A stretch of 64,000 nucleotides of DNA from Sideroxydans lithotrophicus (lineage in GTDB: Bacteria > Pseudomonadota > Gammaproteobacteria > Burkholderiales > Gallionellaceae), in assembly GCA_020723185.1 (NCBI GenBank), contig DYJI01000001.1, positions 414,356 through 478,355 of the forward strand, read 5' to 3'. The notes under the pieces are model-generated. The model was not told the DNA's origin and did not search any database. It worked only from the letters and a program-made list of their open reading frames with translations. Numbering within the stretch: position 1 is the first letter of the stretch; each line of letters opens with the position of its first letter. Shown in pieces: positions 12,740-63,232 of the stretch. The position numbers and the translations under genes are program-made.

Positions 12740-12899
12740 CGTTGACGGACACATAACGCTTCCTTTTGGACAGAAAACGCTTCCTTTTGTGACGCGTAAT
12801 CCTTCCTTGCTTTATAAGGCGTTGACGGACACATAACGCTTCCTTTTGGACAGAAAACGCTTCCTTTTGTGACGCGTAATCCTTCCTTGCTTTATAAGG
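12740..12899 (+). repeat. Left transposon end: perfect 80-bp tandem duplication with six ~21-bp TnsB-like repeats
   Basis: 12740-12819 and 12820-12899 are identical. Each copy starts CGTTGACG and holds three abutting repeats: GACACATAACGCTTCCTTTT-type (12748-12768), GACAGAAAACGCTTCC-type (12769-12790) and GACGCGTAATCCTTCCTTGC (12791-12810), repeated at +80. Repeat lengths of 20-22 bp and head-to-tail packing resemble the overlapping TnsB sites of a Tn7 right end. An entire end duplicated in tandem is unusual and could arise from a second insertion or unequal recombination. Confidence 0.8.
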
Positions 12900-12910
12900 G
12901 GAGCAACACC

Positions 12911-12942
12911 AAGGCCCGCCAACTTTGTTGGCGGGCCTTTTA
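12911..12942 (+). terminator. Rho-independent terminator just inside the left end
   Basis: AAGGCCCGCCAAC and GTTGGCGGGCCTT form a perfect 13-bp stem around a 3-nt TTT loop, followed by a short T-rich stretch. It would stop read-through from nrdAB into the element, or out of it. Such insulation is common at transposon borders. Confidence 0.8.
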
Positions 12943-13100
12943 TCTTTGTGGCCGGGCGTGGCACAAGGGATTCAAGCTGGCGTTTGGGGCAGATGAGCGC
13001 GCCAAGGAAAGACTTAGAGAGATATCAATATATCGTCCAAAACAAGTTACAAAGGTTAGTATTCGCTCCAGCACTGACTGACAATAATAACTAGTTCGAT

Positions 13101-14579
13101 ATGGAATTGAAGGGAAGGGGCATTGTGAATCTGGATGAGGCGAATTTCCGCGCCCATAACGAAGCGGAACAATCCAATAGCGACGAAAAATCCGTAGGTG
13201 CTACAGGATTCAACCCATATCCGGAGCATACGACGCAAACGCTTGCAGATATGATTTCTCGCTACGAACGGACGGGAAGAGCGCAAAACGTTTCGTTTAG
13301 AGATCTTGTTCCGTGGGTCAAGATGGGTGAGCGAGCCACACACTACATTCACTCTTACCCTGCGAAGCTGCTCCCGCAGATTGCTCATTTCTTTCTTTCA
13401 GCGCAGAGCCTCTCCAAGGAGGGAGATATCGTGCTGGATCCCTTCGGAGGATCAGGGACCGTTGCACTAGAGGCAATATTGGCAGGCCGGAAAGCGTATT
13501 ATGCTGATGCAAACCCTTTAGCTCGCTTGATTGCAGGTGTCAAAACTCGTTGTGTACAAACTGAGGCAATTATCCAAGCTGCCGACCGAGTTGAACGGCG
13601 ATATAGTAATGCTCGCATACCGACGGGTTCCGCCCCTTCTGTTGTTAATCTCGAATACTGGTACGAACCTGAAGTTATAAAAAGTTTGTGCCGCATTAAA
13701 GATGCCATCGAAGTCGAAACTGATTGCGCGATAAAGAACTTTTTGCGCGTTTCTTTTTCCTCAGTTTGTCGAAAAGTCAGTCTTGCTGATCCTCGCTTGT
13801 CAGTACCAGTCCGCATTAAGACTTCTACTACACATGCCCCTGATGGTTTTCCGGACGTCTGGAAAGGGTTTTATAGCCAGGTTTCCAATAACTTGCGGCG
13901 AATGCAGAATCTTTTGCAGATGGTGAATGGATTCGATAGTGCGTTCTATGTGGGTGATAATGCGAGGTCTTTGAGGGCACCGACTGCAAACTTTGACCTG
14001 TCTCCCGAAGCGCTTGGCGACAAAAGTGTCGACTTAATCATTACATCTCCACCATACGCAGGGGCTCAAAAGTATATACGAGCCTCCAGTCTTAGTCTTG
14101 GTTGGCTGGGTTTGGCAAACAAAGACGGATTGAAGCCGCTTGAAAATGCATCCATTGGCCGTGAACATTTTCCGACTTCGTCCCATAGGGAGTGTCCACA
14201 GACCGGCCTTGATGTGGCGGATCGGATAATTAAAAGGATCTTCAAAGTAAACCCGCTCAGAAGCGTGATTGTCGCTACGTATATTATCGAAATGGATGCG
14301 GCGATTAAAGAAATGACACGTGTACTTAGGCCTGGTGGACATTTGGTTCTAGTGATTGGAAACAATGAAGTCTGCGGGCTTCCGTTCAAATCGTCTGAAT
14401 ATCTAGCTCTTATATGTGAAAAATATGGGCTATCTCTGAAGCTCAAGTTAATTGATGAGATTAAATCGCGCGGTCTTATGACAAAGCGAAATAAGACGGC
14501 TAGCGTGATTACCCGGGAGTGGGTGCTTCTGTTCGAGAAAAAGGCAGCAAAGCAACGCAAAAGGGTCGATAGGCACTAG
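13101..14579 (+). CDS. DNA methyltransferase (amino-methylating, TSPPY type) of a putative conflict operon
   Basis: The 492-residue protein has an SAM-binding motif DPFGGSGT (113-120) and the catalytic motif TSPPY (315-319), typical of N4-cytosine or N6-adenine amino-methyltransferases. Motif I precedes motif IV by about 195 residues, leaving room for a target-recognition region between them. A second possible start is the GTG at 13125, which has the better ribosome binding site (GGGAAGGGG). Base composition is much more AT-rich than nrdAB. It is the first gene of a tight four-gene block with a PRTase-fold protein, an ATPase and an unknown protein, which suggests self-protection or marking in a defence system. 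No restriction nuclease domain is evident in the block. Confidence 0.82.
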   Translation: MELKGRGIVNLDEANFRAHNEAEQSNSDEKSVGATGFNPYPEHTTQTLADMISRYERTGRAQNVSFRDLVPWVKMGERATHYIHSYPAKLLPQIAHFFLSAQSLSKEGDIVLDPFGGSGTVALEAILAGRKAYYADANPLARLIAGVKTRCVQTEAIIQAADRVERRYSNARIPTGSAPSVVNLEYWYEPEVIKSLCRIKDAIEVETDCAIKNFLRVSFSSVCRKVSLADPRLSVPVRIKTSTTHAPDGFPDVWKGFYSQVSNNLRRMQNLLQMVNGFDSAFYVGDNARSLRAPTANFDLSPEALGDKSVDLIITSPPYAGAQKYIRASSLSLGWLGLANKDGLKPLENASIGREHFPTSSHRECPQTGLDVADRIIKRIFKVNPLRSVIVATYIIEMDAAIKEMTRVLRPGGHLVLVIGNNEVCGLPFKSSEYLALICEKYGLSLKLKLIDEIKSRGLMTKRNKTASVITREWVLLFEKKAAKQRKRVDRH

Positions 14580-14582
14580 TTT

Positions 14583-15608
14583 ATGTCAGAGTCGTTTGAG
14601 AATTTGAAGAAACGCATACTCATACTTAATGAAAAAGTATGGGAGGGTCGACTGACATGGCCCTCTATAGAGGAGTGGCTCGAAAATTTTACAGGGAAGG
14701 TGACGGACAAAGACGCTGAGCGGTTACATGCGGTATTTTGGCTATCTCAATTTATGTATTTTGGCGGGAGAGAAATTCGCGTTTTGCTTAAATCGATGTA
14801 CCGGGATTTATACCTGTATCCAATAATTCAAGAAGTGCGTTCTAGGCTTTCGCCAACTGCGACTGAAAGCGAAATAGAGTTGGCAGTTCGCGATGAATTG
14901 AAGCACACAAGGTTCATTGGAGTTGGCAATCCATCCGAAAGCGGTGTCCATTTGCTGTATTACTTTCGCCAAGAGAATGGGTTATCGAAGAAGCTATTTA
15001 TAGATTCTGTACAAATATTCACCAGATCTTCGGATCGATCGGCTTCGTGGCCAAAGAAGACGTTCAAAATAATCGCTGACTTAGTAAGAGGCCGCACGAG
15101 ACGGCTACGGAGTCCCGAAGTGCGACGCTATGTGTTCTTGGATGACATCTGTGGCTCAGGGGATACCGCAATCGACTATTCTGATGAGATCCTAACGGAG
15201 TTGATGAGGCTTAACCCCACGGCAAAAGTTTCGTATTACAGCCTATTTGCAACGAAGATAGGACTGCAAAAGGTTGAGCAGGGCTCGTTATTTGGTGAGA
15301 ACTGTGGCGCAGTTTACGAACTAGATTCCAGTTATCGATGCCTGTCAGACGCATCTAGGTATTTGAAGATCCTTCCAAAGGATATCGATCGTGATTTAGC
15401 CGTGCAGCTAGTGAAGCACTATGGGATGCTATTAAATCCAGATTATGCATCTGGCTATAAAGATAGTCAGATGCTTATGGGATTTCACCATAACACTCCG
15501 GATAACACAGTTGGGATTATTTGGAACGACAGTCTAAACGGCCGCGCTGCCATACCATGGAAACCCGTGTTTAAACGCTATCCGAAGATATACGGAGAAA
15601 GTGTATGA
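14583..15608 (+). CDS. Phosphoribosyltransferase-fold protein (PRTase-CE-like)
   Basis: The 341-residue protein contains YVFLDDICGSGDTA (about 183-196). This matches the PRPP-binding signature of phosphoribosyltransferases: hydrophobic strand, two acidic residues, then a glycine/serine/threonine loop. The N-terminal half is helical and unlike purine-salvage enzymes, and the gene is not in a nucleotide pathway. PRTase-fold proteins have been predicted in prokaryotic conflict systems beside P-loop ATPases (the PRTase-CE type), and the next gene is such an ATPase. Start is 3 bp after the methyltransferase stop; the end overlaps the next gene by 4 bp. Activity and substrate are unknown. Confidence 0.65.
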   Translation: MSESFENLKKRILILNEKVWEGRLTWPSIEEWLENFTGKVTDKDAERLHAVFWLSQFMYFGGREIRVLLKSMYRDLYLYPIIQEVRSRLSPTATESEIELAVRDELKHTRFIGVGNPSESGVHLLYYFRQENGLSKKLFIDSVQIFTRSSDRSASWPKKTFKIIADLVRGRTRRLRSPEVRRYVFLDDICGSGDTAIDYSDEILTELMRLNPTAKVSYYSLFATKIGLQKVEQGSLFGENCGAVYELDSSYRCLSDASRYLKILPKDIDRDLAVQLVKHYGMLLNPDYASGYKDSQMLMGFHHNTPDNTVGIIWNDSLNGRAAIPWKPVFKRYPKIYGESV

Positions 15609-17653
15609 ATACCACACGCATAAGTGGCAACCCCTTCGATCTGACAAAGGCGAGTGACTTTTCGGATGAGCAAATTCAGCAATTCTGGGTTGATTTGGCT
15701 GGGCCAGGGGGGCTTGAAGATCTGTTTAAGCCTAGGCTGATGATGCCTATGCTGTTGTTGGGAGGCAAGGGGAGCGGCAAAACGCACCTCATGAGGTATT
15801 TTTCGTCCGCAGTTCAGAAGTTGCGCTTCAATGGAAGTTTACTGAGTGCGGCACAACAAGAAAAGCACATTGGCATATATGTGCGAGCCGACGGTTTGAA
15901 TGTAGGTCGATTTGATGGAAAGGGGCAAAGTGATGATGCTTGGGCCGCCGTCTTTAGCTACTACTTTGAGCTATGGTTAGCGACACATCTCTTGAAACAT
16001 GTTCAAGATTGTCTGACTGAACGCGCTGATACCATAGATCAAAGAAAGCTAGTTGCAGGGGCAAGAAGCCTATTTACTTCCGATTTGCCATCGTCAATTG
16101 AAACGATAGCGGCGCTTATCGATTATCTGGCCGAGCTTCGCCGGCACGTTGACCACATTGTTGCGAACTGCGCTATTCATCAGAGTTTGAGGGATATTGA
16201 TATCTGTATCTCTCCAGGAGCCTTGGTTTACAAGCTTCCAGTGCTGCTTAATTCGTGCACAGATATTTTTAAGGATGTGCTGTTCGTTTTCATGATCGAT
16301 GAAATAGAGAACTTCACCGTTACTCAGCAGAAGTTTCTAAACTCGCTCATTCGATATCGAGAAGGTCCTGTTTCAATTAAGATTGGTGCACGGTTGTACG
16401 GTCTTCACACGAAGAAGACACTTGGTGCTGGGGAGGAGATTAAGCAAAATTCCGAATATGAGAAAGTGGAGCTTGACGCGTGGCTCCGCGAGCACGTAAA
16501 AGGCTACAAAGGGCTGGCGGAGGCCTTAATTCTAAAACGGCTCCAACAATTTCATTTTGCTCCCGCCGGAGGAGATGCTTCAAATTGGCTTAGGAATCAG
16601 TTTGAGGAACTCGATTCCAAAAATAACTACAGAGTTCCAACACTCGCACTAGTAAAGAAGTACGATGAAAAAGGTGAGCTGCGGCCGTATTTCAAAAAAT
16701 TGAAAGAAATTATTTGCAGCCTAGAAGATCGGGGTGCAGAGGCACCGATTCAAACAATTGCCGACAACATTATCCAACTGCTTCAACTGCCAAACGATCC
16801 ATTGCTTGAAAAAGTAAACCTGTATCTCTTGTATAAAGAATGGCGTAACACATCAAATTTGGTCGCATCGGCGACTGCGATTGCAGAGCAGGCAAGAAAC
16901 TTTCTTGAAAATGGGAAAGAAGCGGCCCCAAAATATTTTGACTCCTTGGATCATTTCAAGTCGGATCTGCTGGCTCAAATTTATCAAGACTGTAATAAGC
17001 AGCACGTCGTATACGCGGGTCTCGATACATTAATACACCTCTCACAAGGTGTCCCTCGAAATCTTCTTGGGATACTTAAACAAATATTTCGTCGTTCACA
17101 CTTTGCAGGTGAGCGTCCGTTTTCGGAGGCTGGGAAAATTTCAATTTCCTCTCAAGGGGAAGGTATTCGCGATGCAGCAGCGTGGTTCTGGGATGATGCG
17201 CAGCCGGATAGGCACGGATCAGAGGTTAGGGCGGCAATTGAGTCATTGGCAAAGCTGTTTCGGGGTGTCCGCTATAGCCTCAAGCCAGCAGAGTGTGATT
17301 TGGCAACGTTTTCAGTAAATCCAAAAGTTGGATCCGAGATGGCTCGGGACGTTCTAGCGCATGCGGAAAACTGGTCTTACCTTGTCCGTGTTCGAGATGG
17401 TGGGGTCAGCCGTAATGACAGCAACTCAATTGACGATAAATTCCAACTTAGTCCAATGCTGGTAGCTCGTTGGGAAGTGTCTGAGCACAGGCGTGGTGCA
17501 ATCGAGCTTCAGGAGAATCTTTTTAATGCATTATTTGATCCGGTATGCCGCCCTCAACTGAATACACTCTTGGCCGAACGGCTAAAGGGAATGGAGGAGC
17601 CGTACATTAAGGGGAGTATTGGCGCCAGTAGCTTTCAAAACAAACTATTCTAA
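15605..17653 (+). CDS. Large P-loop ATPase of the putative conflict operon
   Basis: This 682-residue protein has a Walker A motif GGKGSGKT (53-60) close to the N-terminus and a Walker B strand VFMIDEIEN near residue 230, followed by an Arg-rich sensor-like region. The rest is helical and not recognised. The layout recalls AAA+/STAND-type switch ATPases that act as sensors or regulators in defence systems. Its ATG overlaps the preceding stop codon and the next gene starts 13 bp after its end, so the products probably act together. The specific subfamily cannot be assigned by eye. Confidence 0.72.
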   Translation: MNTTRISGNPFDLTKASDFSDEQIQQFWVDLAGPGGLEDLFKPRLMMPMLLLGGKGSGKTHLMRYFSSAVQKLRFNGSLLSAAQQEKHIGIYVRADGLNVGRFDGKGQSDDAWAAVFSYYFELWLATHLLKHVQDCLTERADTIDQRKLVAGARSLFTSDLPSSIETIAALIDYLAELRRHVDHIVANCAIHQSLRDIDICISPGALVYKLPVLLNSCTDIFKDVLFVFMIDEIENFTVTQQKFLNSLIRYREGPVSIKIGARLYGLHTKKTLGAGEEIKQNSEYEKVELDAWLREHVKGYKGLAEALILKRLQQFHFAPAGGDASNWLRNQFEELDSKNNYRVPTLALVKKYDEKGELRPYFKKLKEIICSLEDRGAEAPIQTIADNIIQLLQLPNDPLLEKVNLYLLYKEWRNTSNLVASATAIAEQARNFLENGKEAAPKYFDSLDHFKSDLLAQIYQDCNKQHVVYAGLDTLIHLSQGVPRNLLGILKQIFRRSHFAGERPFSEAGKISISSQGEGIRDAAAWFWDDAQPDRHGSEVRAAIESLAKLFRGVRYSLKPAECDLATFSVNPKVGSEMARDVLAHAENWSYLVRVRDGGVSRNDSNSIDDKFQLSPMLVARWEVSEHRRGAIELQENLFNALFDPVCRPQLNTLLAERLKGMEEPYIKGSIGASSFQNKLF

Positions 17654-17666
17654 GTTGAAGAAAGTA

Positions 17667-18617
17667 ATGAATCTTCGGTATCTATTAAATCGGAAGTGCA
17701 TATTAACTTTCGCTAAGCCCGCTAGCCGCTCGTGGGACATCTTTATATCCGCATACAACGGCGCGGAACGAGTGCAGCAAGTATTTGAGCAAATAGTGGC
17801 AGGCAGGAAATTTTGGGTAGTGCTACCAGAATACGGTTACACAAATGATGAATTGCCAAAGCAGCCAGAAGTGATTTCCTTTACGGGAGGCAATGAGGCA
17901 GACGTAATCATAGGACTAATAAAAGAACGTATCGGTATAGATGCCCTCAGAGGGAAGGCAATCTGCATAGACATCACTGGCTTTATGCGACCGCACATTC
18001 TTTTCCTTGTCCAGTACCTACAGACAGCAGGCATAACATCATTCGACATGATTTATACAGAGCCGGAGCAGTATGGGCGCAAGGAAGATACCGATTTCTC
18101 ACAAGACGTGTGCATGGTGCGCCAAGTTTCCGGATTTGAGGGCACTCATAATGATGACATTGCAGACGACATATTAATCGTAGGTGTTGGATACGATGAC
18201 CAGCTTATTTCTAGAGTCGTAAATGAGAAAGATGGCGCAAAACTTTTTCAACTGCGAAGCTTACCTTCCTTGAGCGCTGATATGTACCAAGAAAGTATCC
18301 TGCGGCTTGATAAGACCCCTCTAGCGGACAACCCCGATATGGAAGATCGGGTGTTTTTTGCTCCAGCAAATGATCCGTTTGTGGTAGCAACGGAACTGTC
18401 CGATAAACTGCAGCATCTTCGTGCTCGGAATTCGGTCGGCAATATTTACCTTAGCCCACTCGCCACAAAGCCGCAAGCTCTTGGGTTCGCTATTTTTTTT
18501 ATATCAGAGCTAAAGGCCGAGCCGGCTAGCATCATATTCCCCTTCTCTACATCTTACTCAAAAGAGACAAGTGCAGGGGTTGGGCGAACTTGGTGTTACG
18601 AGATTCGATTAGCCTGA
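17667..18617 (+). CDS. Unrecognised protein, fourth gene of the conflict operon
   Basis: About 316 residues from the ATG at 17667, which has a GAAGAAAG ribosome binding site; an in-frame start at 17619 would overlap the ATPase gene. The sequence alternates strands and helices: AICIDITGFMRPHILFLVQY near 95-115, ILIVGVGYDD near 175, and a C-terminal FPFSTSYSKET segment. This suggests a Rossmann-like alpha/beta fold, but I recognise no catalytic motif. Its position as the last gene of the operon makes it a candidate effector or adaptor. Confidence 0.6.
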   Translation: MNLRYLLNRKCILTFAKPASRSWDIFISAYNGAERVQQVFEQIVAGRKFWVVLPEYGYTNDELPKQPEVISFTGGNEADVIIGLIKERIGIDALRGKAICIDITGFMRPHILFLVQYLQTAGITSFDMIYTEPEQYGRKEDTDFSQDVCMVRQVSGFEGTHNDDIADDILIVGVGYDDQLISRVVNEKDGAKLFQLRSLPSLSADMYQESILRLDKTPLADNPDMEDRVFFAPANDPFVVATELSDKLQHLRARNSVGNIYLSPLATKPQALGFAIFFISELKAEPASIIFPFSTSYSKETSAGVGRTWCYEIRLA

Positions 18618-18822
18618 GCCCTTGCTGTCAATCTTAGTTAGGAATCGGTATATAAGCCGTGCTAACTACTGGGTCGTTCTTTTCGCATTGAAGACTTGAT
18701 GCATTATCCCGATTTAGGCATATAGGCGCTGGGGATGACTGATGATAGTCTTCGGCAATGTCTGCCTTGCCTTCAATAGGTATAAGAACTTCGCAGTAGC
18801 ACTCAAACAGAAAAAACAAAAA

Positions 18823-20970
18823 ATGTCCCAACTCCAGCACATCGAAGCTATCGAAAAACGCCTGTGGAAAGCCGCTGACACTTTGCGCTCCAACTCGGAA
18901 CTGGCCAGCAACGAATACTTCATGCCCGTGATGGGCCTGATCTTTCTGCGCCACGCCTACAGCCGCTATCTAGGCGTTAAGGATGAGATCGTCAAAACCT
19001 TGCCTAGCCGTGGCGGTAAAACCCGCGACTTGACCAAGGAAGATTTTTCCCAGAAGGGCGCGATCTTCCTTAACGCCGCCGCCCAGTTCGACCATCTGGT
19101 AACCCTCAGCGATGCCGACGACCGCGCCGAGGCAATCATCACTGCGATGGAGTCGATCGAGAAAGACTATACAGGCCTTACTGGTCAGCTGCCCAAGGAG
19201 GAGTATCGCAATATTCCCAATGACGTACTGGGCCAATTGTTGCGCACCCTCAACCCTGATGAACTGAAGAAGGCAGACGGCGACATCTTTGGTCGCATCT
19301 ATGAATACTTCCTCACTCAATTCGCCGATGTGGGTGCGCATGATGGCGGAGAGTTTTTCACACCTGTCTCTCTGGTACAGTTGATTGTCAACATTATCGA
19401 GCCCAGCCACGGCAAGGTGCTCGACCCCGCTTGCGGCTCCGGGGGCATGTTTGTGCAGAGCGCGCACTTTGTAGAACACCAGCACAAGAACCCCGGCACC
19501 GAGCTCACTTTCTACGGCCACGAAAAAAACAAAACTACCACCCGTCTGGCCAAGATGAATCTTCGCGTTCACGGTCTGGAAGGCAACATCGCAGGTGGCG
19601 TACTGACTTATTACGACGATCCGCACGATGGTTTGTGGAGCAATGTCGATTTCGTCATGGCCAATCCGCCGTTCAACATCGACGAGGTAGACGCCGGCAA
19701 GATCAAAACCGACCGCCGGCTGCCCTTCGGCCTACCCGGAGTCAATAAAGGTGGCAAGGTCTCCAACGGCAACTACCTGTGGATTTCCTACTTCTACAGC
19801 TACCTGAATGAAAAAGGCCGCGCCGGATTCGTTATGTCCTCCCAGGCCTCAAGCGCCGGGGGCGGCGAGGCGGCGGTGCGCCAGGCATTGGTCGAGACCG
19901 GCCACGTGGATGCGATGGTGGACATCCGTTCCAACTTCTTCTACACCCGCACCGTGCCGTGCCAGTTATGGTTCCTCAACAAGGACAAACCCAAGGCACA
20001 TAAAGACAAGGTGCTGATGCTCGACGCCCGCCAGGTCTACCGCAAGGTTACGCGCAAAATTTACGATTTCAGCCCCGAGCAACTGGCCAACCTCACCAGT
20101 ATCGTCTGGCTCTACCGTGGTGAACGCGAGCGGTTTATCGAACTGGTGCAAAGCCACATCCAGAATTGCCTAGACCACGCTTGGTATGCCTACGTCATGG
20201 ATGTGGAGCAAGACGGCGAGACGCTCGAAGTCCGCCCCATGGACGATTGCATCGGGGTGCTGCAAGAGATCGAGCAGGCCATCACCCCGTTCTATGAAAA
20301 ACAGGGCGACGAGCAGCGGGCACATCTGAAGGAGTTCAGCGCCGTCCTATCTACGCTCAGTGAAGACAGCATTGCCTTCGACAAGGCCATCGACAAGGCT
20401 GTTGCCAAGTGGGAAAAGGGGGGCTTCGACAACGCTGAACAGCTCAACAAACTGATCGAGCAAGGCGGCATGGTTGAGCAATCGGCCGAGACCGCTCGCG
20501 ACCTGATCAAACAACTGGACCTCACCTGCAAGCTTGCCGGCCGCCTGATTGATGCTGCGGAAAAAGAACTCGCCGCTAAAGACGATGAAAGCTGGGACAG
20601 CAAACACATCAGCTCCGGCCGCGACAGCCTGAAAAAACAGGCCGAGGCCACCCGCGTCGAGGCAGTGGAACAGCTCAAGCAGCTGCGCTACTTCTATAAA
20701 CAGGCTCACTGGCTGTTAAGCCGCTTCCCCGATGCCGAGCTGGTGGATGTGGAAGGGCTGGTCAAGTTGGTGGACATCAAGGAAATCAAGGCCAACGACT
20801 GGAGCCTCACTCCTGGTCGCTACGTCGGTGTCGCCCCGGAAGAAGAGGATGATGACTTCGACTTCGAAGAGACCCTGCGCGATATCCATGTCGAGCTGCA
20901 AGGCCTGAATGAAGAGGCGGTGGCGTTGGCGGAGAAGATTGCCCAGAACTTTCGGGAGTTGGGGGTATGA
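18823..20970 (+). CDS. hsdM: Type I restriction-modification methyltransferase subunit HsdM
   Basis: The 715-residue product starts with the HsdM N-terminal helical domain (MSQLQHIEAIEKRLW), followed by the N6-adenine methyltransferase domain. The SAM motif is DPACGSGGMF (about 205-214) and the catalytic motif is NPPFN (near 285). The C-terminal 250 residues are rich in charged helices, probably coiled coil, and make it longer than classic HsdM. An in-frame ATG at 18742 exists, but the family start is at 18823. hsdM, hsdS and hsdR overlap by 4 bp each. Composition is more GC-rich than the operon upstream, so this is a separate acquisition. Confidence 0.95.
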   Translation: MSQLQHIEAIEKRLWKAADTLRSNSELASNEYFMPVMGLIFLRHAYSRYLGVKDEIVKTLPSRGGKTRDLTKEDFSQKGAIFLNAAAQFDHLVTLSDADDRAEAIITAMESIEKDYTGLTGQLPKEEYRNIPNDVLGQLLRTLNPDELKKADGDIFGRIYEYFLTQFADVGAHDGGEFFTPVSLVQLIVNIIEPSHGKVLDPACGSGGMFVQSAHFVEHQHKNPGTELTFYGHEKNKTTTRLAKMNLRVHGLEGNIAGGVLTYYDDPHDGLWSNVDFVMANPPFNIDEVDAGKIKTDRRLPFGLPGVNKGGKVSNGNYLWISYFYSYLNEKGRAGFVMSSQASSAGGGEAAVRQALVETGHVDAMVDIRSNFFYTRTVPCQLWFLNKDKPKAHKDKVLMLDARQVYRKVTRKIYDFSPEQLANLTSIVWLYRGERERFIELVQSHIQNCLDHAWYAYVMDVEQDGETLEVRPMDDCIGVLQEIEQAITPFYEKQGDEQRAHLKEFSAVLSTLSEDSIAFDKAIDKAVAKWEKGGFDNAEQLNKLIEQGGMVEQSAETARDLIKQLDLTCKLAGRLIDAAEKELAAKDDESWDSKHISSGRDSLKKQAEATRVEAVEQLKQLRYFYKQAHWLLSRFPDAELVDVEGLVKLVDIKEIKANDWSLTPGRYVGVAPEEEDDDFDFEETLRDIHVELQGLNEEAVALAEKIAQNFRELGV

Positions 20971-30932: not shown

Positions 30933-30934
30933 TT

Positions 30935-51673: not shown

Positions 51674-51711
51674 ATTTGATGAAGAAAATAAATTGAGGAG
51701 GGGCTTGCTGC

Positions 51712-56574: not shown

Positions 56575-57471
56575 ATGTCAATTCATGCAGAGCAAGACAA
56601 CTTGAAATTTGCATCAGGAATAGGTGCAAGCAATTTTCAGCAAAGCATCAACCAAGACATTTGGTTGAAACACAAACACCAGAAATCTGCTGGGCATTCT
56701 ATATATATAGATAGGGAGCTCAGTGCTCGTAGCCTGCTTTATGCGGATCAACTTCCGACATTCGCGGAAATGGCAGTACGGCGGAGCCTGTTCGAACAGG
56801 TAGACCTCGCCTTTTCAAAAGAACCAACGTTGAGTGGGGTAATAGACGGTTGCCGTGAGATCAAGCTCGGGAAACGTGGTGGAGGCCGAGCAAGCTATTT
56901 TCCAAGCAAGAAGAACGCGAAGTCAGGTCTACCTGCAGTAGCGATTCCTGTCGAGAGTCGAGCGGAATCTGCGTTCGCCCTCGAATTGGAGCGTAATCCT
57001 TCCGTTCAGGCATTCAGGACGCAAGCTCTTGCACTGGACATACCAGGATCAAACCATCCGATCTATCCGGACTTCCTGTATGTCGATACGGGTGGCAGGC
57101 TGCATGTTCGAGAAGTAAAGGCGAACAAGGAGTATCTGAGCAGTGAGTTCCGCGAGCGCATCGAAGTGATTACTGGGATTCTACATAAAGAAGGAATCAG
57201 CTATGCCGTCGTTGATTTGAATGACATGCCGAGCGGAATGAAGTCAGCAAATCTGTTCTGGCTGCACAAGCAATATGACCGAATCCCTCACATGGATGAA
57301 ATCAAGGCGTTCTTTGCGCTCGATTTTGAGCGTTCAACTTATGGCGAGCTTCAGGAGCTCTGCAGGAGCAACGGACTTCCAGCCTCGCTCGTTCCCTACC
57401 TGCTGATGTGCGAATGGCTACAGACAAATTGGAAGTGCCGAATCGACAACCTGATGGAGGTGTGGAAATGA
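56575..57471 (+). CDS. tnsA: Tn7-like transposition endonuclease TnsA
   Basis: The 298-residue protein cleaves the 5' ends of the transposon. The restriction-endonuclease-like catalytic residues are visible: E131 in ESRAESAFA, D166 in YPDFLYV and K182 in VREVKAN. The C-terminal domain (about 205-298) is the winged-helix part that contacts TnsC. The ATG at 56575 has a GGAAAGGAAG ribosome binding site; a GTG at 56551 is too close to its AGGAGG. Presence of TnsA implies cut-and-paste rather than replicative transposition. It overlaps tnsB by 4 bp. Confidence 0.92.
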   Translation: MSIHAEQDNLKFASGIGASNFQQSINQDIWLKHKHQKSAGHSIYIDRELSARSLLYADQLPTFAEMAVRRSLFEQVDLAFSKEPTLSGVIDGCREIKLGKRGGGRASYFPSKKNAKSGLPAVAIPVESRAESAFALELERNPSVQAFRTQALALDIPGSNHPIYPDFLYVDTGGRLHVREVKANKEYLSSEFRERIEVITGILHKEGISYAVVDLNDMPSGMKSANLFWLHKQYDRIPHMDEIKAFFALDFERSTYGELQELCRSNGLPASLVPYLLMCEWLQTNWKCRIDNLMEVWK

Positions 57472-59492
57472 ATGATGTTTCAATTTGCAACCCGAAAGTA
57501 GGGATGCGTTTTGAAATGCGCGGCTCTGAGTTCGAGGTTTGCTTTGCGCAGTTCGGATTGCTCAGATACGCATCGGTAAAAGGAGGGACCCCATACAGGC
57601 TTAAGATTAATAAGTTTCATGACTATCAGGAACGCAAGGAAATAAAGATTCTGAAGCCCGAGTTGTATAAGGGTGACCAGGTACAAGGTTGCGATGATGG
57701 TGGTTATGCACCAGCAAGTCTTTCCCAGAAGGAGCTGACTGAAGGAATGCGTCGGATTCGCTACGCGGAAGCTGCAACTTCTGAGTTGGTTCATCCAAAC
57801 TCCTACAAGGAAATCGAGAACTGGCTTCCTAGCTGTGCAGCTCGAATCAAGGACGTGAATCCACCTGTTCCTCGGTCAGTTTCTTCGTGGGTAAAGACCT
57901 ATCGTGAAAAAGGGCGAGATGCTTTGTTTGCGCCAGAACGGAAGCGTGGAAATAGAACGCTAAAGTTCTCTCCAGAGATTCATATTCTTATGCTGGAAGC
58001 GATCGATGAATATCTGAATAAGAAGGAGCGTCGGGATGCTAAGGATGTTCTTGCTCATATTGCTGGAAGGTTGGCCGAGCAGGATTTGCTCGACAAGGAT
58101 GGAGAAAAGGTTCCCATCCCACATGAGAGAACAATCAGGCGCTACCTCGAGAAGCTCGATCCGTACCTCCTAATCAGGCTTAAGCAGGGACCGTTGGCTG
58201 CTGAGAAAGCGGTAAGGGCTGCCGGAAAAGTAATCACGTCTCCAGGGCCAATGCATCTGGTGCAGATCGATACACACTTTCTGAAAGTCTTTGTGGTCGA
58301 TCCTGAAACAGGCGAGGTCCTTGGGAAGCCTTATCTGGTCTGCGCTTTCGATGTCAGGACACGTTGCATCGTTGGGGTCTATATCAGTTTGATGCCAGCA
58401 TCGGCAGCGACCACATTGGGTGTGGTGAAAGACATGCTGACCCGCCCAAATTCTGGCCTGCCTGGAGGCATCCCGGTTTATTTGATCCCAGACAACGGCG
58501 TTGAATTCAAGAACGCGGCGGTCGTTAGGTTGTGCGCCAGCCTGTCTATCCATTTTGAACCGGCTCAAGTTCGTGATCCAAATGGCAAGGCGCACGTTGA
58601 GCGCTTCTTCAGCACGTTATCGAACTACCTTATTCAAAAACTTCCAGGTAGAACTTTTACAGATATCAATACAAGAGGTGATTACAAGTCTGAGAAGGAA
58701 GCAACAGCCACGCTTGAGGATATCGAAAAGTATGTCCGTTTCTGGATTGAGGAGGAGTATCACCAGCGCATACATAGTGGCACATCGCGTGCTCCGATCA
58801 TGCACTGGCAGGAAGAGACATCTGCTGTCCCACGCCAAGGACTGACGCCAACCGATGTTGATGTGCTTGCGCGTACGCCCTATCAGGTCAAGATCAATCG
58901 CGGGCGAGTGCGCGTTGAGAAGCTTGAGTTCTGCAGCCAAGCCCTGAAAAAGCTGGAAGCAGAACACAAAGGTTCTGTAACGGTTCTCCTGAACGAACTC
59001 GACCTGTCATATGTATATGTCCAGGATCCGTATGAAAAGGGCAATTTCATCCAGGCAGATTCTGTCGACCCTGAGTACACCAAGGGGCTGACGCTTTCCG
59101 AACACAAAGAAGTCCAAGTCCTCAAGATGAAGATGGCCAAGGAAGATCTTGATGCGCTAGGCAAGAACGCAAACCTGTTGGCTCGGTGGCAATTGATGCA
59201 GATGGTCCAGAAAGATTCGAAAGCGGCTCGCAAGAAGATCGCAAAACTGACGAACGGTGCAGGTCGAAAGAGCTTCGGGAAGCAGGAGAGCTTACCCATC
59301 CTCGATGAAACTCCACCACCTTCAATGGTCAAGCAGGAAACGGAGAGACACCGTAAACCTGAGGATCCCCAAACCAGGCTGAGGGGTCGGGGTGTGGAAC
59401 CTGAAATTACAACGGATATCACTAGCAGAGATCCTGCGTTCAAAGCGAGCGCGGAGAGGGCGTTCAAATCAAAAATCTACAGAATGGAGTAA
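57468..59492 (+). CDS. tnsB: Tn7-like DDE transposase TnsB
   Basis: The 674-residue transposase has N-terminal DNA-binding HTH domains (about 90-230), the catalytic core with D268 (LVQIDTHF), D342 (IPDNGVEF) and E378 (KAHVERFFS; a D-D-35-E spacing), a Mu-transposase-like beta-barrel (about 470-560), and a C-terminal tail rich in charged and proline residues that would contact TnsC. It binds the ~22-bp end repeats and joins the 3' ends. All catalytic residues are present, so the element may be active. Confidence 0.95.
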   Translation: MNDVSICNPKVGMRFEMRGSEFEVCFAQFGLLRYASVKGGTPYRLKINKFHDYQERKEIKILKPELYKGDQVQGCDDGGYAPASLSQKELTEGMRRIRYAEAATSELVHPNSYKEIENWLPSCAARIKDVNPPVPRSVSSWVKTYREKGRDALFAPERKRGNRTLKFSPEIHILMLEAIDEYLNKKERRDAKDVLAHIAGRLAEQDLLDKDGEKVPIPHERTIRRYLEKLDPYLLIRLKQGPLAAEKAVRAAGKVITSPGPMHLVQIDTHFLKVFVVDPETGEVLGKPYLVCAFDVRTRCIVGVYISLMPASAATTLGVVKDMLTRPNSGLPGGIPVYLIPDNGVEFKNAAVVRLCASLSIHFEPAQVRDPNGKAHVERFFSTLSNYLIQKLPGRTFTDINTRGDYKSEKEATATLEDIEKYVRFWIEEEYHQRIHSGTSRAPIMHWQEETSAVPRQGLTPTDVDVLARTPYQVKINRGRVRVEKLEFCSQALKKLEAEHKGSVTVLLNELDLSYVYVQDPYEKGNFIQADSVDPEYTKGLTLSEHKEVQVLKMKMAKEDLDALGKNANLLARWQLMQMVQKDSKAARKKIAKLTNGAGRKSFGKQESLPILDETPPPSMVKQETERHRKPEDPQTRLRGRGVEPEITTDITSRDPAFKASAERAFKSKIYRME

Positions 59493-59495
59493 CAA

Positions 59496-60497
59496 ATGAA
59501 AACGAATACACAATCCAATGAAGTTTTTTCTAGCCAATCAGAGCAGCAGGCATACGAGGTCGTAGCCGAAATCGACAAGATACGTGTAGGACACCAGTTC
59601 TATAACGGAGCGTTGAATGACATAAATGACTGCCTGAAAGCCTCCGCATTTTCTAGGGAGCCGGTGAACTGTATGTTGCTAGGCAATGGGGGGATGGGGA
59701 AGACTTCTGTCGCAGAAATGATCATGAGTACGATGAAGCCGAAGATCATTCGAGAAAACGACATGGAGACGATAACTGTTCCGGCGTTTTACGCAAGCTT
59801 CAAGTCATCTACCAGCTTGAAATCGTTGCTGACAGAAATGCTTGGAAAACTTGGTGATCCGCACCCCACCATTGGTGATGAAGTCGACAAGGCACAGCGC
59901 TTTTACACATTGCTCGTCCAGTGTCACACAAGGATTATTTTCCTTGATGAGTTGCACGACATCGAGGGCTTTAAAAACTATAACTACAGAGCTATGCAAA
60001 AGTTCATCAAGGTTCTAAAGACAATCAGTAATGTGCGTGGGCCAGTAACCTGTGTGATGGGGATTCCGGAGTGTCATGACATATTTAAAGGGGATCAGGA
60101 AATGTCCCGGCGGTTTAAACGTCAGATTATCTTGCACAAACTCAGACCAGGAACAGAGGCGGCACCTGGGATGCTGAAAAACTTCGTCAGTGATGTTTAT
60201 GAAGCAATCATCGAATCCACTGAGATCAAGGGGTTTCCGAGCCTGTCATATTCAAGTGTATTGCAGATATACACTGCCACGGGCGGAAGTCCGGACTACA
60301 TCATGACTCTCATCAAAGAGTCGACTCTGCACGCCATGTTGAACGGTAGGGTACACGTTGAGATTGGGGATTATGCAAACACTTGGGCTAATGGTCTGCT
60401 GAATGGCGCAGATCTTGGCAAAAAAATCCAAGTGGGCTTCAACCCCTTCCTCGCTGAACAAGCAAGACTGGCTAGCATGTTCAGGGAGGGTTATTGA
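59496..60497 (+). CDS. tnsC: Tn7-like AAA+ regulator TnsC
   Basis: The 333-residue ATPase has Walker A GNGGMGKT (63-70), Walker B IIFLDELHD (D151, E152) and an Arg-rich segment near 207 (SRRFKRQIIL). It forms a filament on target DNA that links target choice by TniQ with the TnsAB transposase. It starts 3 bp after tnsB and its stop overlaps the tniQ ATG (TGATG). Confidence 0.94.
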   Translation: MKTNTQSNEVFSSQSEQQAYEVVAEIDKIRVGHQFYNGALNDINDCLKASAFSREPVNCMLLGNGGMGKTSVAEMIMSTMKPKIIRENDMETITVPAFYASFKSSTSLKSLLTEMLGKLGDPHPTIGDEVDKAQRFYTLLVQCHTRIIFLDELHDIEGFKNYNYRAMQKFIKVLKTISNVRGPVTCVMGIPECHDIFKGDQEMSRRFKRQIILHKLRPGTEAAPGMLKNFVSDVYEAIIESTEIKGFPSLSYSSVLQIYTATGGSPDYIMTLIKESTLHAMLNGRVHVEIGDYANTWANGLLNGADLGKKIQVGFNPFLAEQARLASMFREGY

Positions 60498-62617
60498 TGA
60501 CCGGTCACCTGGTTTCTCGCCCCATCCCGATTCCCGGTGAATCGTCCGCAAGCCTATTGATGCGTGCAGTCGAGGGGAATGGCTATCCGAGTCTGTCGGC
60601 GCTGATCTGGGCATTTTGGGGAAACAAAAGCGGCAAGGGTTGGGCTGAGGCTGCGCATACGGATCCCGCTCGGTATGCGGAAATCCTCTCCGCATTCGGT
60701 ATCAAGGTCCCGGAGGTTGACTCGATATGTTTCCGTAGGGAAGGCCCAACATCCGAAAGTGCGCGCGTCATGGATGGCATGTGCATCCATGAACAGATGT
60801 TTAGGGAGGATGGACGCTACTACTGTCCAAAGTGCCTTGAACAGCGTCCATATTGGCGGCGGAGCTGGTCCCTCAGGGCATATTCCGTGTGTACTGAGCA
60901 CAATATGTATTTGCTACGAGACTGTCCGACATGCGGTTCCGAATTGTCGGCGGGCCGCGGTGAGCTCGCTAAATGCAGCTGCGGGACCAACTTGAAGCAA
61001 GCGGCGAGCGATCCAGCTGACTCATCAGCAGTTGATTGGTGGTTGCAGATTCATCAGTCCTCTCTGGAGCTCTCTCAGCACGCAGATATCTTATACCTTG
61101 CACTTTCGGGGATGGATGGTGGCGAGAAGGATCCAATATCGGAGCACCGTAGGTTATGCACGGTTCGCTCCTGGATAGAGAACGGTGAGGTTGATGCGGC
61201 GGTCATGGAAATGGTAGGCAAGGAGTCGGCTCTTCATCCACGTCTGCTGCTGCTCCCTCTGTTGAGGAGAGCGGACATCCCTGAGATCGAAAGGTTTGCC
61301 AAGGCCATCCTGAAGCTATGGCAGTCACCAGACAATATGCCGGAATTCAAAGGGGAGGAAGTAATCGGCCGCCGCGATGCAGAACTCGCATTGGGGATTT
61401 CCACCGCCCAATTCAGGAAATTCTTGGAGACAACTCTATTGGACTTTCCAAATGGGGAGCGCCCTTCAAGAGGGCGGGTAAGCCAGGCGGCAGTAAACCG
61501 GCTGTTGTTCATTCTGAATTTAGGCAAGGTCGATGCAGCAGATGGCGTGACCCGGGAGCAGACAAAGAGCCTGGCATCCATGGTGATGAGTGTCCTGTGT
61601 GGCGATCTTGAAAGCGCAGGGTATGACGTGACAGCGGGGCTGAATACCTTGCGGTTGAAGCAGAAAGCGCAGGATCGGCAGCTGGAAACAGGAGCGTCTT
61701 TCGACTGGGTGGATACCAGTCAGGTAGCCGAGGTGCTAGGCACCTATCCAGAGGCGGTCCGGTTCCTGAGGATCAAAGGGTGGATTGCCTTCAGGGATCG
61801 GGACTTGGAGGGCAAGAAGAGGTTCATCGCGAATCGGCACGATGTTGAGCAATTCCACAAAGCCTATGTTCTGGGTGGGACGATAGCCTCACAGCTCGGC
61901 ATGAACCCAACAAACCTTTCTGAAAAACTCATGGCGCTAGGAGTGCAGCCTGTGGCTGGGCCGAAATTGGACGGTCTGTTGGTATATCTGTTCCGGCGGG
62001 TGGACATTGAAGGGATCGACATTGAGTCGCTGCGAACGATGGAACAGTACCCCACTAATGCAGGACGGAAGCGGAAAAACGGGGAGGCAGCGGATGGGCA
62101 AAGTCCCAATGGCGAGATGAATGCGGGCGCAGCAGCTGTCGCACTTGGGGTTGGGCTTTCTGACATCCATTCGTTAATACAGAAGGGATTTATTGAGCGC
62201 GTACCAAAGCTCAACAGGGAGATCATCGTGTCTGCAAAGTCTGTCCGCAGGCTTGAAAGGCAACTTCAGCGCGAAGACCTACTTCCCATAGATGAGGCTG
62301 CAAACCGCCTCGGCTTGACTAAGGAGATGCTGGAAAGCCGATGGATCAAGAGCGGCGTGCTCCACGCACTCGACTTTGGGATATGTCGCAAGATTGCGGC
62401 CAAAGAGCTGGAATACCTCGAGTCTATTCTTGGGGAACATGTCACCGCTGCCGAAGGCGGCCGGCTCCTGAAGATGCATCGATCTTACTTGCCGAACCTG
62501 GAAAGGAGGGGAGCCATTCTGTCCAAAAAGGTCGGAACTGGGCAGGGGGTGCGGCTGTATGCCCGGGCAGATGTGATCAACTTAAAGAGGGGATTTCTGA
62601 AACCAGCGAATCTCTAA
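60497..62617 (+). CDS. tniQ: TniQ/TnsD-like target-selection protein
   Basis: The 706-residue protein has the TniQ N-terminal domain (RPIPIPGESSASLLMRAVEGNG, about 9-29) and a zinc-binding region with C110/C113, C132/H135, C143/C146 and C160/C162. The long C-terminal part contains several MerR/excisionase-like helix-turn-helix units (for example DTSQVAEVLGTYPEAVRFLR, IDEAANRLGLTKEMLESRW and AEGGRLLKMHRSYLPNLERR). This size and architecture fit TnsD, which binds a fixed chromosomal site, rather than the short TniQ of CRISPR-guided elements. The likely target is the 3' end of nrdB. A TTG at 60494 precedes the ATG. Confidence 0.9.
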   Translation: MTGHLVSRPIPIPGESSASLLMRAVEGNGYPSLSALIWAFWGNKSGKGWAEAAHTDPARYAEILSAFGIKVPEVDSICFRREGPTSESARVMDGMCIHEQMFREDGRYYCPKCLEQRPYWRRSWSLRAYSVCTEHNMYLLRDCPTCGSELSAGRGELAKCSCGTNLKQAASDPADSSAVDWWLQIHQSSLELSQHADILYLALSGMDGGEKDPISEHRRLCTVRSWIENGEVDAAVMEMVGKESALHPRLLLLPLLRRADIPEIERFAKAILKLWQSPDNMPEFKGEEVIGRRDAELALGISTAQFRKFLETTLLDFPNGERPSRGRVSQAAVNRLLFILNLGKVDAADGVTREQTKSLASMVMSVLCGDLESAGYDVTAGLNTLRLKQKAQDRQLETGASFDWVDTSQVAEVLGTYPEAVRFLRIKGWIAFRDRDLEGKKRFIANRHDVEQFHKAYVLGGTIASQLGMNPTNLSEKLMALGVQPVAGPKLDGLLVYLFRRVDIEGIDIESLRTMEQYPTNAGRKRKNGEAADGQSPNGEMNAGAAAVALGVGLSDIHSLIQKGFIERVPKLNREIIVSAKSVRRLERQLQREDLLPIDEAANRLGLTKEMLESRWIKSGVLHALDFGICRKIAAKELEYLESILGEHVTAAEGGRLLKMHRSYLPNLERRGAILSKKVGTGQGVRLYARADVINLKRGFLKPANL

Positions 62618-62636
62618 CAGAAGAATCGGAATAAAA

Positions 62637-62996
62637 ATGACCAATGTTTATCGAAACACACTGTTCAAGCATTTGGCTTCGAATGCCAGCGACTGTCCAA
62701 TCGAATGGCTAGTGGATTTTGGGGCTAAGGAGATCAGACTCCGCGCCAGTTTCATCTCTCCGGCACTGATTATCGATTGCATACGGCATATGTCACAGGC
62801 AGATGAGCGTTTCAAGCTTGCCGGTATTACCGACCCTCTTCAAATCAGCAACAGTTTTCAAATTCAACTACAGCTTGTGCACGGGGATATGCCCGCCGTG
62901 CAGTTCAAATTGAACGTTTACAAACTTCAAACGGGTAGTCAAAGTCTGGACAGACTGGAAATCGAACTGACTCCAACAGAATTCCGCCTTAATTAG
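62637..62996 (+). CDS. Unrecognised small protein at the end of the tns operon
   Basis: The 119-residue protein has a mixed alpha/beta pattern: a polar N-terminus with two cysteines, then ALIIDCIRHMSQADERFKL near 45-63, and strands toward the C-terminus (FQIQLQLVHG, VQFKLNVYKL, RLEIELTPTEF). It starts 19 bp after tniQ and ends just before a strong terminator, so it is the last gene of the tns transcript. I know no family for it. Position suggests a role in transposition or its control; this is inference. Confidence 0.6.
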   Translation: MTNVYRNTLFKHLASNASDCPIEWLVDFGAKEIRLRASFISPALIIDCIRHMSQADERFKLAGITDPLQISNSFQIQLQLVHGDMPAVQFKLNVYKLQTGSQSLDRLEIELTPTEFRLN

Positions 62997-63022
62997 GCAG
63001 TCCGCGTTCAACGCGGGCAGTG

Positions 63023-63057
63023 AAAATGCCGTCCTCTTTGTCAGGGCGGCATTTTTT
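63023..63057 (+). terminator. Rho-independent terminator of the tns operon
   Basis: AAAATGCCGTCCT and AGGGCGGCATTTT form a 13-bp stem (one G-U pair) with a loop of about 7 nt, followed by a T run. It closes the xre-tns transcription unit about 100 bp before the right end repeats. Confidence 0.82.
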
Positions 63058-63158
63058 CGCCGAAAAAATGCCGGTAGTTTTGGCGAATATTGAAGGGTCT
63101 CGCCCATCTGAAGCGGGGAATATTGATTTTGAGGCCCATCAATTAAAGCCCAAAATTA

Positions 63159-63232
63159 GGCGAGGAAGGGTTATGTGTCATTAATGTCAACGAAGGAAGG
63201 ATAACGTGTCTTGGGAGGAAAGGCTGATTGTC
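63159..63232 (-). repeat. Right transposon end: three inverted TnsB-like repeats
   Basis: Read on the minus strand these are GACACATAACCCTTCCTCGC-type (63159-63179), GACACGTTATCCTTCCTTCG (63191-63210) and GACAATCAGCCTTTCC-type (63211-63232). They are inverted relative to the left-end repeats and share the GACAC-N4-CCTTCC core. CGTTGACA (63185-63192, minus strand) equals the left CGTTGACG terminus except for one base, yet two repeats lie outside it. So the end is either at 63192 with an outer remnant copy, or near 63233. Confidence 0.68.

What the first reader, a model, noticed from the sequence alone, without database searches (positions are those of the whole stretch)
12740..63192. A ~50-kb Tn7-like transposon that appears to carry a whole aerobic hydrogen-oxidation system
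Inverted arrays of ~21-bp repeats near 12.75 and 63.2 kb share the core GACAC-N4-CCTTCC and near-identical 8-bp CGTTGAC(G/A) motifs, and bracket a tnsABC-tniQ operon plus hydrogenase, Hyp, Ni-uptake, H2-sensing, Tat and defence genes. Tn7-family elements are known for defence and resistance cargo; I know of none described with a complete oxygen-tolerant hydrogenase, its H2 sensor and its own Tat system. It would be a one-step route to lithotrophy.
Basis: partly seen in the sequence, partly recalled or inferred. Interest (0 to 1): 0.95.

Follow-up and report, generated by a model that had tools for sequence, protein, structure and literature searches.

The report
Hydrogenase-carrying Tn7-like transposon at nrdB
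A 50.6-kb Tn7-like transposon sits 12 bases after the gene nrdB in a bacterium likely related to the iron-oxidiser Sideroxydans, and it carries a gene set predicted to make and control an oxygen-tolerant hydrogen-using enzyme, so it would likely let that energy source spread between species in one jump.

Summary
Confirmed and sharpened. The six relatives nearest by NrdB show the empty site. It belongs to an nrdB-attached Tn7-like lineage: 12 of 17 genomes with related TnsB have a left end 7-13 bp after nrdB; in the 10 readable from nrdB to tnsB no hydrogenase lies between, and the three cargoes partly annotated look like defence. The window's element carries defence genes plus a 25-kb cluster: O2-tolerant-type hydrogenase, Hyp set, HoxX, H2 sensor, kinase, regulator, nickel uptake, then TatABC. 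In congeners the cluster is chromosomal without tns; the six nearest relatives lack it, and its LSU nests among more distant congeners, so horizontal gain is likely. "One-step route to lithotrophy" is too strong: the host has two other hydrogenase loci and another TatC; the element adds the O2-tolerant, H2-sensing arm. Mobility and H2 oxidation are inferred. Searches of held papers showed no nrdB-attached or hydrogenase-bearing Tn7-like element.

The parts
11588..12727 (+). nrdB, the attachment gene (its 3' end is the likely TniQ target); outside the element
   Evidence: Pfam Ribonuc_red_sm; left ends 7-13 bp after nrdB in 12 other genomes (counted by eye)
12735..12739 (.). 5-bp target duplication GTTTT, left copy
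12740..12819 (+). left end: terminus CGTTGACGG and three TnsB-site-like repeats (12748, 12769, 12791)
12820..12899 (+). exact tandem copy of the left end
12911..12943 (+). terminator-like hairpin followed by a T-run just inside the left end (read by eye)
   Evidence: sequence
13101..14579 (+). N4/N6 DNA methyltransferase
   Evidence: Pfam N6_N4_Mtase, PADLOC MTase_II
14583..15608 (+). PRTase-CE protein
   Evidence: Pfam PRTase-CE; PADLOC PRTase_III-A
15605..17653 (+). ORC-CDC6-like ATPase
   Evidence: Pfam ORC-CDC6-like
17619..18617 (+). CARF6-type protein
   Evidence: PADLOC CARF6, E 1.9e-103; no Pfam match
18742..25381 (+). type I restriction-modification hsdM, hsdS, hsdR
26141..27274 (+). 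hydrogenase small subunit: RRSFLK Tat signal, ECTCC and GMFC cysteines of O2-tolerant enzymes
27277..29076 (+). hydrogenase large subunit (HyaB/HoxG type)
29097..29804 (+). cytochrome b subunit
30264..34433 (+). maturation protease, HyaE, HupH/HyaF, HybE/HupJ, HupK-like
34336..40559 (+). hypA, hypB, hypF, hypC (38120-38374), hypD, hypE
40376..42262 (+). hoxX-like (formyl transferase + enoyl-CoA hydratase domains)
42310..43758 (+). hoxA-like sigma-54 response regulator
43703..46331 (+). sensor hydrogenase small and large subunits (HoxB/HoxC, HupU/V type)
46341..46784 (+). NikR
46797..48143 (+). hoxJ-like PAS histidine kinase
48282..51260 (+). NicO nickel transporter and TonB-dependent receptor
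51449..52799 (+). tatA (51449-51673), tatB (51712-52071), tatC (52068-52799)
53182..54647 (-). two genes without family match
54711..55712 (-). IS-type transposase-like gene (HTH_32 below cut-off, HTH_Tnp_1 just above)
55920..56360 (+). HTH regulator, with a homologue before tnsA/tnsB in L040, L041, L042, L050, L053 and L110
56551..57471 (+). tnsA (weak family match; E/D/ExK pattern conserved)
57408..59492 (+). tnsB DDE transposase
59496..60497 (+). tnsC AAA+ regulator
60494..62617 (+). tniQ/TnsD-like target selector, 707 aa
62637..62996 (+). small gene, no family
63160..63295 (-). right end: four TnsB-site-like repeats and terminus CGTTGGCGG
63296..63300 (.). 5-bp target duplication GTTTT, right copy

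Best explanation
Window 12740-63295 is a Tn7-like transposon that likely inserted itself 12 bp downstream of nrdB, with its own TnsABC and a TnsD-like TniQ predicted to recognise the nrdB 3' end, and it carries a gene set predicted to build an oxygen-tolerant, H2-sensing uptake hydrogenase. Shown by sequence: inverted ends with repeat arrays, 5-bp target duplication, empty sites in relatives, an open tns operon with conserved catalytic and metal-binding residues, other elements with like left ends at the same place after nrdB, and the hydrogenase cluster with its own regulators inside. Inferred: TniQ binds the conserved end of the nrdB coding sequence, TnsC bridges it to TnsA/TnsB, which cut out and paste the element so that nrdB stays intact; the sensor HoxBC and kinase HoxJ would control HoxA and hence sigma-54 transcription of the hydrogenase, which would feed H2 electrons through cytochrome b to the quinone pool. 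The cluster was likely captured from a chromosome of a distant congener of the G005/G011/G013/G014 kind, joined to a defence block, and brought into this lineage by the element.
For: Ends and duplication. Empty site: the six nearest congeners have both flanks in contact; none of 24 other congeneric nrdB loci read has the element. Transposase set. nrdB-attached family: a left end 7-13 bp after an nrdB stop in 12 of 17 distinct genomes with related TnsB, 10 of them with nrdB and tnsB on one contig. Horizontal gain of the cargo: the six relatives nearest by NrdB (94.5-97.6%) have at best the 58-60% paralog; the window's LSU nests in a clade with G005, G011, G013, G014 at 97/97 and 98/94 support; LSU GC3 63% against 82-86% in those and 83% in the host's nrdB and C8 LSU; GC of the element 0.45-0.60 against 0.59-0.63 upstream. 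O2-tolerant type: extra cysteines; the closest solved large subunits are Hydrogenase-1 and HoxG.
Against: No transposition has been seen. Of 11 elements readable from nrdB to tnsB (window plus 10) only the window's has a hydrogenase there, so repeated spread is not shown. This TnsB occurs in one of 34 genus genomes (six others have distant relatives of 27-31%) and one of 158 family genomes at E <= 1e-60. The identity evidence for transfer is mixed: LSU protein identity to the distant congeners (91-92%) is above NrdB (84-86%) and the C8 paralog (80.5-85%), but its nucleotide identity (80-81%) and third-position identity (57-59%) are not above theirs, and between G011 and G013 this LSU is also far more alike (94%) than NrdB (81.5%), so slow change of this LSU may explain part; GC3 of the G023 and G018 copies is 51-54%. 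Loss in the six near relatives is not excluded. Termini read CGT...ACG, not the TGT...ACA recalled for Tn7. TnsA matches known TnsA weakly (NCBIfam E 7e-7 and Pfam E 0.0034, both below cut-off; Tn7 TnsA E 0.019). The doubled left end is unexplained. Right ends of eight relatives: a duplication was found for one.
Confidence: 0.92

Rival explanations
1. A small Tn7-like element (tns operon plus ends) inserted beside an already present hydrogenase island, so that the hydrogenase is a neighbour and not cargo.
For: The same cluster is chromosomal, without a close tnsB, in eight congeners read and by scattered hits in G027.
Against: The GTTTT duplication brackets the whole 50.6 kb; no other ends were found near 55.8 kb; the nearest relatives have neither cluster nor element at nrdB; in the congeners the cluster lies elsewhere, and the genes that flank it in G030 are on C2 and C3 in this genome.
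Confidence: 0.04
2. A genomic island brought in by another vehicle (conjugative element, plasmid or phage) with a Tn7-like element as one of its parts.
For: The element has no transfer genes among the ORFs scanned, so some vehicle must carry it between cells; conjugative carriers of Tn7-like elements are known (recalled).
Against: No integrase, relaxase or phage gene among the ORFs scanned in 12.7-63.3 kb; the flanks on both sides are the host's own nrdB locus.
Confidence: 0.03
3. Relic: a dead element whose tns genes or ends no longer work, kept only as an island.
For: Doubled left end; an IS-type gene inside; a single tnsB in the genome.
Against: tnsA, tnsB, tnsC, tniQ are open, with conserved catalytic and metal-binding residues; perfect target duplication.
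Confidence: 0.2

Closest known systems
Tn7 and Tn7-like transposons with protein-guided (TnsD/TniQ) targeting
   Same: TnsA, TnsB, TnsC, TniQ/TnsD-like gene; 5-bp duplication; repeat arrays three left and four right (number recalled for Tn7); insertion just after a conserved gene
   Different: Attached to nrdB, a site not named in the main text of the two surveys searched (PMC8649781, PMC10293859); CGT termini; the cargo-side end faces the attachment gene and the tns operon runs outward to the far end (Tn7 orientation recalled); hydrogenase cargo
Type I-F3 CASTs of Shewanella with narGHJI cargo (PMC12452197, passages seen)
   Same: Tn7-like element carrying a whole respiratory operon; type I RM also found as cargo
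   Different: RNA-guided, other targets, nitrate reductase; 'hydrogenase' has 0 hits in its text
Hydrogenase island on plasmid pAM1A3 of Alteromonas macleodii (PMC4781885, passages seen)
   Same: complete NiFe hydrogenase cluster on a mobile carrier
   Different: plasmid / flexible island; no Tn7-like element in the passages seen
Chromosomal hya cluster of Sideroxydans sp. CL21 (PMC7784907, passages seen)
   Same: G023, whose contig length equals that of a CL21 record, has the cluster in the same gene order with SSU 93%, HypD 93%, LSU 70-73% identical; the paper reports hya and hyp genes upregulated in co-culture
   Different: no close tnsB in that genome, other place

Membership tests
Tn7-like transposons | DDE transposase TnsB related to known Tn7-family TnsB | tested here: met
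   profile matches PseCAST and Tn6677 TnsB (E about 1e-52), ShCAST TnsB (4e-16), Tn7 TnsB (3e-7); D268, D342, E378 (numbering of P0001) invariant in 22 sequences
Tn7-like transposons | TnsA endonuclease | tested here: met
   weak but consistent: NCBIfam TnsA_like_Actin E 7e-7 and Pfam TnsA N E 0.0034, both below cut-off; profile against structures gives TnsA chains first, E 0.013-0.019; E135/E139/E147, D174, E188-x-K190 invariant in 9 sequences
Tn7-like transposons | AAA+ TnsC and TniQ/TnsD-like selector | tested here: met
   TnsC E 2e-31 to VchTnsC; TniQ E 3e-23 to TniQ structures; zinc-ribbon cysteines invariant in 9 sequences
Tn7-like transposons | 5-bp target duplication and arrays of TnsB sites at both ends | tested here: met
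   that TnsB binds the repeats is inferred
Tn7-like transposons | TGT...ACA termini (recalled for Tn7) | tested here: not met
   CGT...ACG here; relatives' left termini read CGT or CAT. Taken as a subfamily trait, not as a defining feature
Tn7-like transposons | Targeted insertion after a fixed conserved gene | tested here: met
   left end after nrdB in 12 of 17 distinct genomes plus the window; not at nrdB in 5 of 17
Tn7-like transposons | Cut-and-paste transposition, target immunity | not testable with these tools
   needs an assay
CRISPR-associated transposon | Cas effector genes and CRISPR array in the element | tested here: not met
   no Cas effector among the scanned ORFs; PADLOC gives CARF6 and PRTase_III-A matches only; no CRISPR-like repeat family
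O2-tolerant membrane-bound uptake hydrogenase (group 1d-like) | two extra small-subunit cysteines near the proximal cluster, Tat signal, cytochrome b partner | tested here: met
   ECTCC, GMFC, RRSFLK; cytochrome b. The C8 enzyme of the host has ECTGC and GVYS instead. Cysteine rule and group name recalled
O2-tolerant membrane-bound uptake hydrogenase (group 1d-like) | H2 oxidation in air | not testable with these tools
   needs enzyme assay

The most novel reading that the evidence does not exclude
nrdB-attached Tn7-like transposons are vectors for aerobic hydrogen respiration among iron-oxidising Gallionellaceae: the same hydrogenase cluster rides on at least two diverged transposon backbones. 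The protein search lists the window's exact LSU on 4 contigs, the longest 697,036 bases, and a 72%-identical TnsB named for 'Sideroxydans sp.' whose longest contig is also 697,036 bases, which suggests identical cargo beside a different transposase.
Probability: 0.35. Interest if true: 0.88.

Novelty: new variant of a known kind. Interest (0 to 1): 0.78.

Why it matters
How energy metabolisms such as aerobic H2 oxidation hop between lineages is usually read from gene trees without a vehicle. Here the vehicle is in hand with exact ends, an empty site, a target gene and a likely donor clade, so it can be tested. It also adds nrdB, a very widespread gene (recalled), as a landing site for a Tn7-like lineage whose left ends were seen at nrdB in Acinetobacter, Chromobacterium, Chitiniphilus, Chitinibacter, Acidithiobacillus and others.

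Tried and rejected
Right end at 63192 (reader): moved to 63295 after finding the outermost repeat and the duplication. Element restricted to 55.8-63.3 kb: no ends found there. High-identity LSU fragments in G003 (97%) and G027 (96%): in G003 the fragment runs to the end of C20 and the rest starts C89, with the left-flank gene on C20, so one chromosomal copy broken by a contig border; in G027 the same is likely (C45, C78) but has a frame break. Plasmids: 4748 records, all below 60% identity. Viral contigs: none. Right ends of eight relatives by pattern plus exact duplication: in L040 TTCTG repeats one base beyond the pattern end; L043 and L046 gave the pattern without the duplication; the other five gave nothing. 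The last protein search, on NrdB, was meant to place the 697,036-base contig; no listed protein has that contig length. Papers: Tn7-like + nrdB 0; Tn7 + ribonucleotide reductase + TnsD 0; Tn7-like + hydrogenase 7; wider searches, and Sideroxydans searches. Of the papers listed I saw passages of nine, none describing a Tn7-like element with a hydrogenase; the rest I saw in listings only. Supplements, preprints and most subscription papers were not searched.
Full report
What was claimed. A Tn7-like transposon of about 50 kb (12740-63192) that carries a complete aerobic hydrogen-oxidation system.

Ends. The left repeats lie at 12748, 12769 and 12791, and the whole 80-bp left end is present twice in tandem (12740-12819 and 12820-12899). 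On the other side the motif occurs four times on the minus strand at 63160, 63191, 63213 and 63268. A matrix from the left sites alone ranks 63160 and 63191 directly after the six left sites among all positions on both strands (63213 and 63268 do not reach its top 16); a matrix from the right sites ranks four of six left sites next. The outermost bases are CGTTGACGG (left, from 12740) and CGTTGGCGG (right, complement, ending at 63295). Directly outside both lies GTTTT; only one place in the window has at least 7 of 9 terminus bases followed by GTTTT. The element is therefore 12740-63295, 50,556 bp, with a 5-bp target duplication, starting 12 bp after the nrdB stop codon. Three sites left and four right is what I recall of Tn7.

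Empty site. Of 61 genomes searched, 52 had an nrdB match and 30 loci were given, one of them the window's own. In the six congeners nearest by NrdB (L011-L016; 94.5-97.6%) nrdB is followed after a short spacer by a terminator and the leader of the histone-like gene, as in the window's two flanks; from the nrdB end to the start of the right-flank match is 24-106 bp, of which 9-83 bp correspond to unaligned right flank. In all 24 other congeneric loci read, the six included, the right flank follows within 1.13 kb, so none holds the element. Nine of the 61 genomes had no nrdB match, and G002, G003 and G017 gave fragments only; they say nothing here. In G026 and G005 a second copy of the nrdB 3' end follows the gene, which I did not explain.

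Transposition genes. TnsB (57408-59492) matches TnsB of PseCAST and Tn6677 (E about 1e-52), ShCAST and Tn7 among solved structures, with the D, D, E triad invariant over 22 sequences. TnsC matches VchTnsC (E 2e-31), TniQ matches TniQ structures (E 3e-23) and keeps its zinc-binding cysteines. TnsA is weak by family profile (below cut-offs) and against structures (E 0.013-0.019), but its E, D, E-x-K pattern is invariant in nine sequences. TnsB occurs once in the genome; in the genus six of 33 other genomes have only distant relatives of 27-31%; at E <= 1e-60 it is in 1 of 158 family genomes and 6 of 399 order genomes, this one included.

A family attached to nrdB. In 12 of the 17 a left end begins 7-13 bp after an nrdB stop codon (counted by eye), typically CGTCGAGCGACACATAAG; the end in G114, whose TnsB is only 27% identical, is the most different. 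In 10 of the 12 nrdB and tnsB lie on one contig; in L042 and L052 they are on different contigs. The five without a left end at nrdB are G438, G440, G442, G444 and G446; among these the TniQ match is partial (L045), absent (L051, L053), full length but only 23% (L047), or the contig ends before it (L049). That pattern is the basis for naming TniQ the nrdB selector; binding is untested. Cargo ORFs of three of the 12 were scanned (nine ORFs): CD-NTase, ThiF and SAVED proteins as in CBASS in Acinetobacter nosocomialis, OLD-like with SbcC- and SbcD-like proteins in Chitinibacter, OLD-like in a Neisseriaceae MAG, whose 1540-aa protein matched nothing above cut-off. The NiFe hydrogenase family occurs in 9 of the 17 genomes; in the 10 readable elements no match lies between nrdB and tnsB, and in L042 and L052 the matches are on other contigs, the element interiors not being assembled.

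Cargo. 13.1-18.6 kb: methyltransferase, PRTase-CE, ORC-CDC6-like, CARF6 protein; 18.7-25.4 kb: type I RM. 26.1-51.3 kb: small and large subunit, cytochrome b, protease, HyaE, HupH, HybE, HupK-like, HypABFCDE, HoxX, HoxA-like regulator, sensor subunits, NikR, HoxJ-like kinase, NicO, TonB receptor. 51.4-52.8 kb: TatA, TatB, TatC. The small subunit has the Tat signal RRSFLK and two extra cysteines (ECTCC, GMFC) that I recall as marks of O2-tolerant enzymes; the nearest solved large subunits are Hydrogenase-1 and HoxG.

Where the cargo came from. The cluster 26.08-49.14 kb occurs in gene order, as far as contigs allow, in eight congeners (G011, G005, G014, G013, G030, G003, G023, G018), and by scattered hits in G027; with a close TonB receptor to 51.2 kb in G005 and G027 (86-89%). 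None of these genomes has a close TnsB. Five share a right flank and G011/G030 a left flank; G013, G018 and G023 share another immediate context. The genes flanking it in G030 lie on contigs C2 and C3 in this genome. The six nearest relatives have at best the 58-60% paralog. In a tree of 44 large subunits (window, 7 congeners, 36 of the 120 proteins listed) the window's copy pairs with P0107 (97%) and falls inside a clade with G005, G013, G011 and G014 (98/94 and 97/97); G030, a close relative of G011 by NrdB, falls outside that clade, so the gene tree departs from NrdB in more than one place. Protein identity of the LSU to G011, G005, G014, G013 and G030 is 91-92%, against 80.5-85% for the C8 paralog between this genome and 12 distant congeners and 84-86% for NrdB; but at nucleotide level (80-81%; third positions 57-59%) it is no closer than those genes, and G011 against G013 shows the same excess (LSU 94%, NrdB 81.5%), so a slowly changing protein may explain part of it. 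GC3 of the LSU is 63% here, 82-86% in those five, 51-54% in G023 and G018. Gain from a distant congener or a donor near that clade is the simplest reading; loss in the six near relatives is not excluded. In the fetched stretches beside the congeners' clusters there was no TatC or CARF hit and only distant RM hits. This weighing was made more cautious on checking; the odds for the element itself, which do not rest on it, are unchanged.

What it adds to the host. The genome already holds a Tat-exported hydrogenase on C8 beside hypF, hypC, hypD and hypE, whose small subunit has ECTGC and GVYS, that is, without the extra cysteines; a hydrogenase-like gene on C6 with hypA and hypB; and another TatC on C12. 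The element thus likely adds oxygen tolerance and H2-responsive control. For the counterpart in Sideroxydans sp. CL21 a paper reports upregulation of hyaABC and hyp genes in co-culture and discusses H2 as electron donor (PMC7784907, passages); G023 has the contig length of a CL21 record. The Gallionellaceae pangenome paper reports HyaAB and HupUV only in iron oxidisers, and 'transposon' has no hit in its text (PMC10734462, passages). The genus name is inferred from such matches.

Literature. Benler et al. (PMC8649781, passages) report metabolic cargo in Tn7-like elements, few complete pathways, a P460 cytochrome in Nitrospira; the main text has no 'hydrogenase' and no 'nrd'. Faure et al. (PMC10293859, passages) has no 'nrd' or 'ribonucleo' in the main text. 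Supplements were not read. Shewanella CASTs carry narGHJI (PMC12452197, passages). A hydrogenase cluster on a plasmid is known (PMC4781885, passages). The T. kivui megatransposon carries an IS1182-like transposase and arose in a CO-adapted isolate (PMC12056078, passages). Acidithiobacillus ferrooxidans has two Tn7-like elements, with no hydrogenase named beside them in the passage seen (PMC2621215). So respiratory cargo in Tn7-like elements has precedent; an O2-tolerant hydrogenase with sensor was not met in what I searched. Author names are recalled.

Open points.

Noticed in passing
L018 (G026) and L035 (G005), just after nrdB: A second copy of the end of nrdB follows the gene within about 150 bp in two congeners; perhaps a trace of another element at the same site.
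   Followed up: no
window 12740-12899: The left end is an exact 80-bp tandem duplication; the second copy is preceded by TAAGG, not by the GTTTT duplication.
   Followed up: partly
window 13101-18617: MTase, PRTase-CE, ORC-CDC6-like and CARF6 genes in one run: looks like a CARF-linked conflict system without a CRISPR array.
   Followed up: no
window 44794-44871: Near-perfect 26-bp inverted repeat (96%) with 26 bases between the arms, at the border of the sensor genes hoxB and hoxC.
   Followed up: no
L138 (G445, Acidithiobacillus ferrivorans): Two nrdB genes in one genome, one of them (C101) followed by a left end of this family.
   Followed up: partly
window 34903-35042: Imperfect repeat in hypB (CACGACCATACTCATGACCAT), which would code for histidine-rich stretches.
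   Followed up: no
G020:C10, also G004, G007, G022: One search shows sensor-like and HupK-like hits on G020:C10 without a close LSU, and weak HupK-like hits in G004, G007 and G022, these three on the contig that also holds the G030 right-flank gene; partial clusters may exist there.
   Followed up: no
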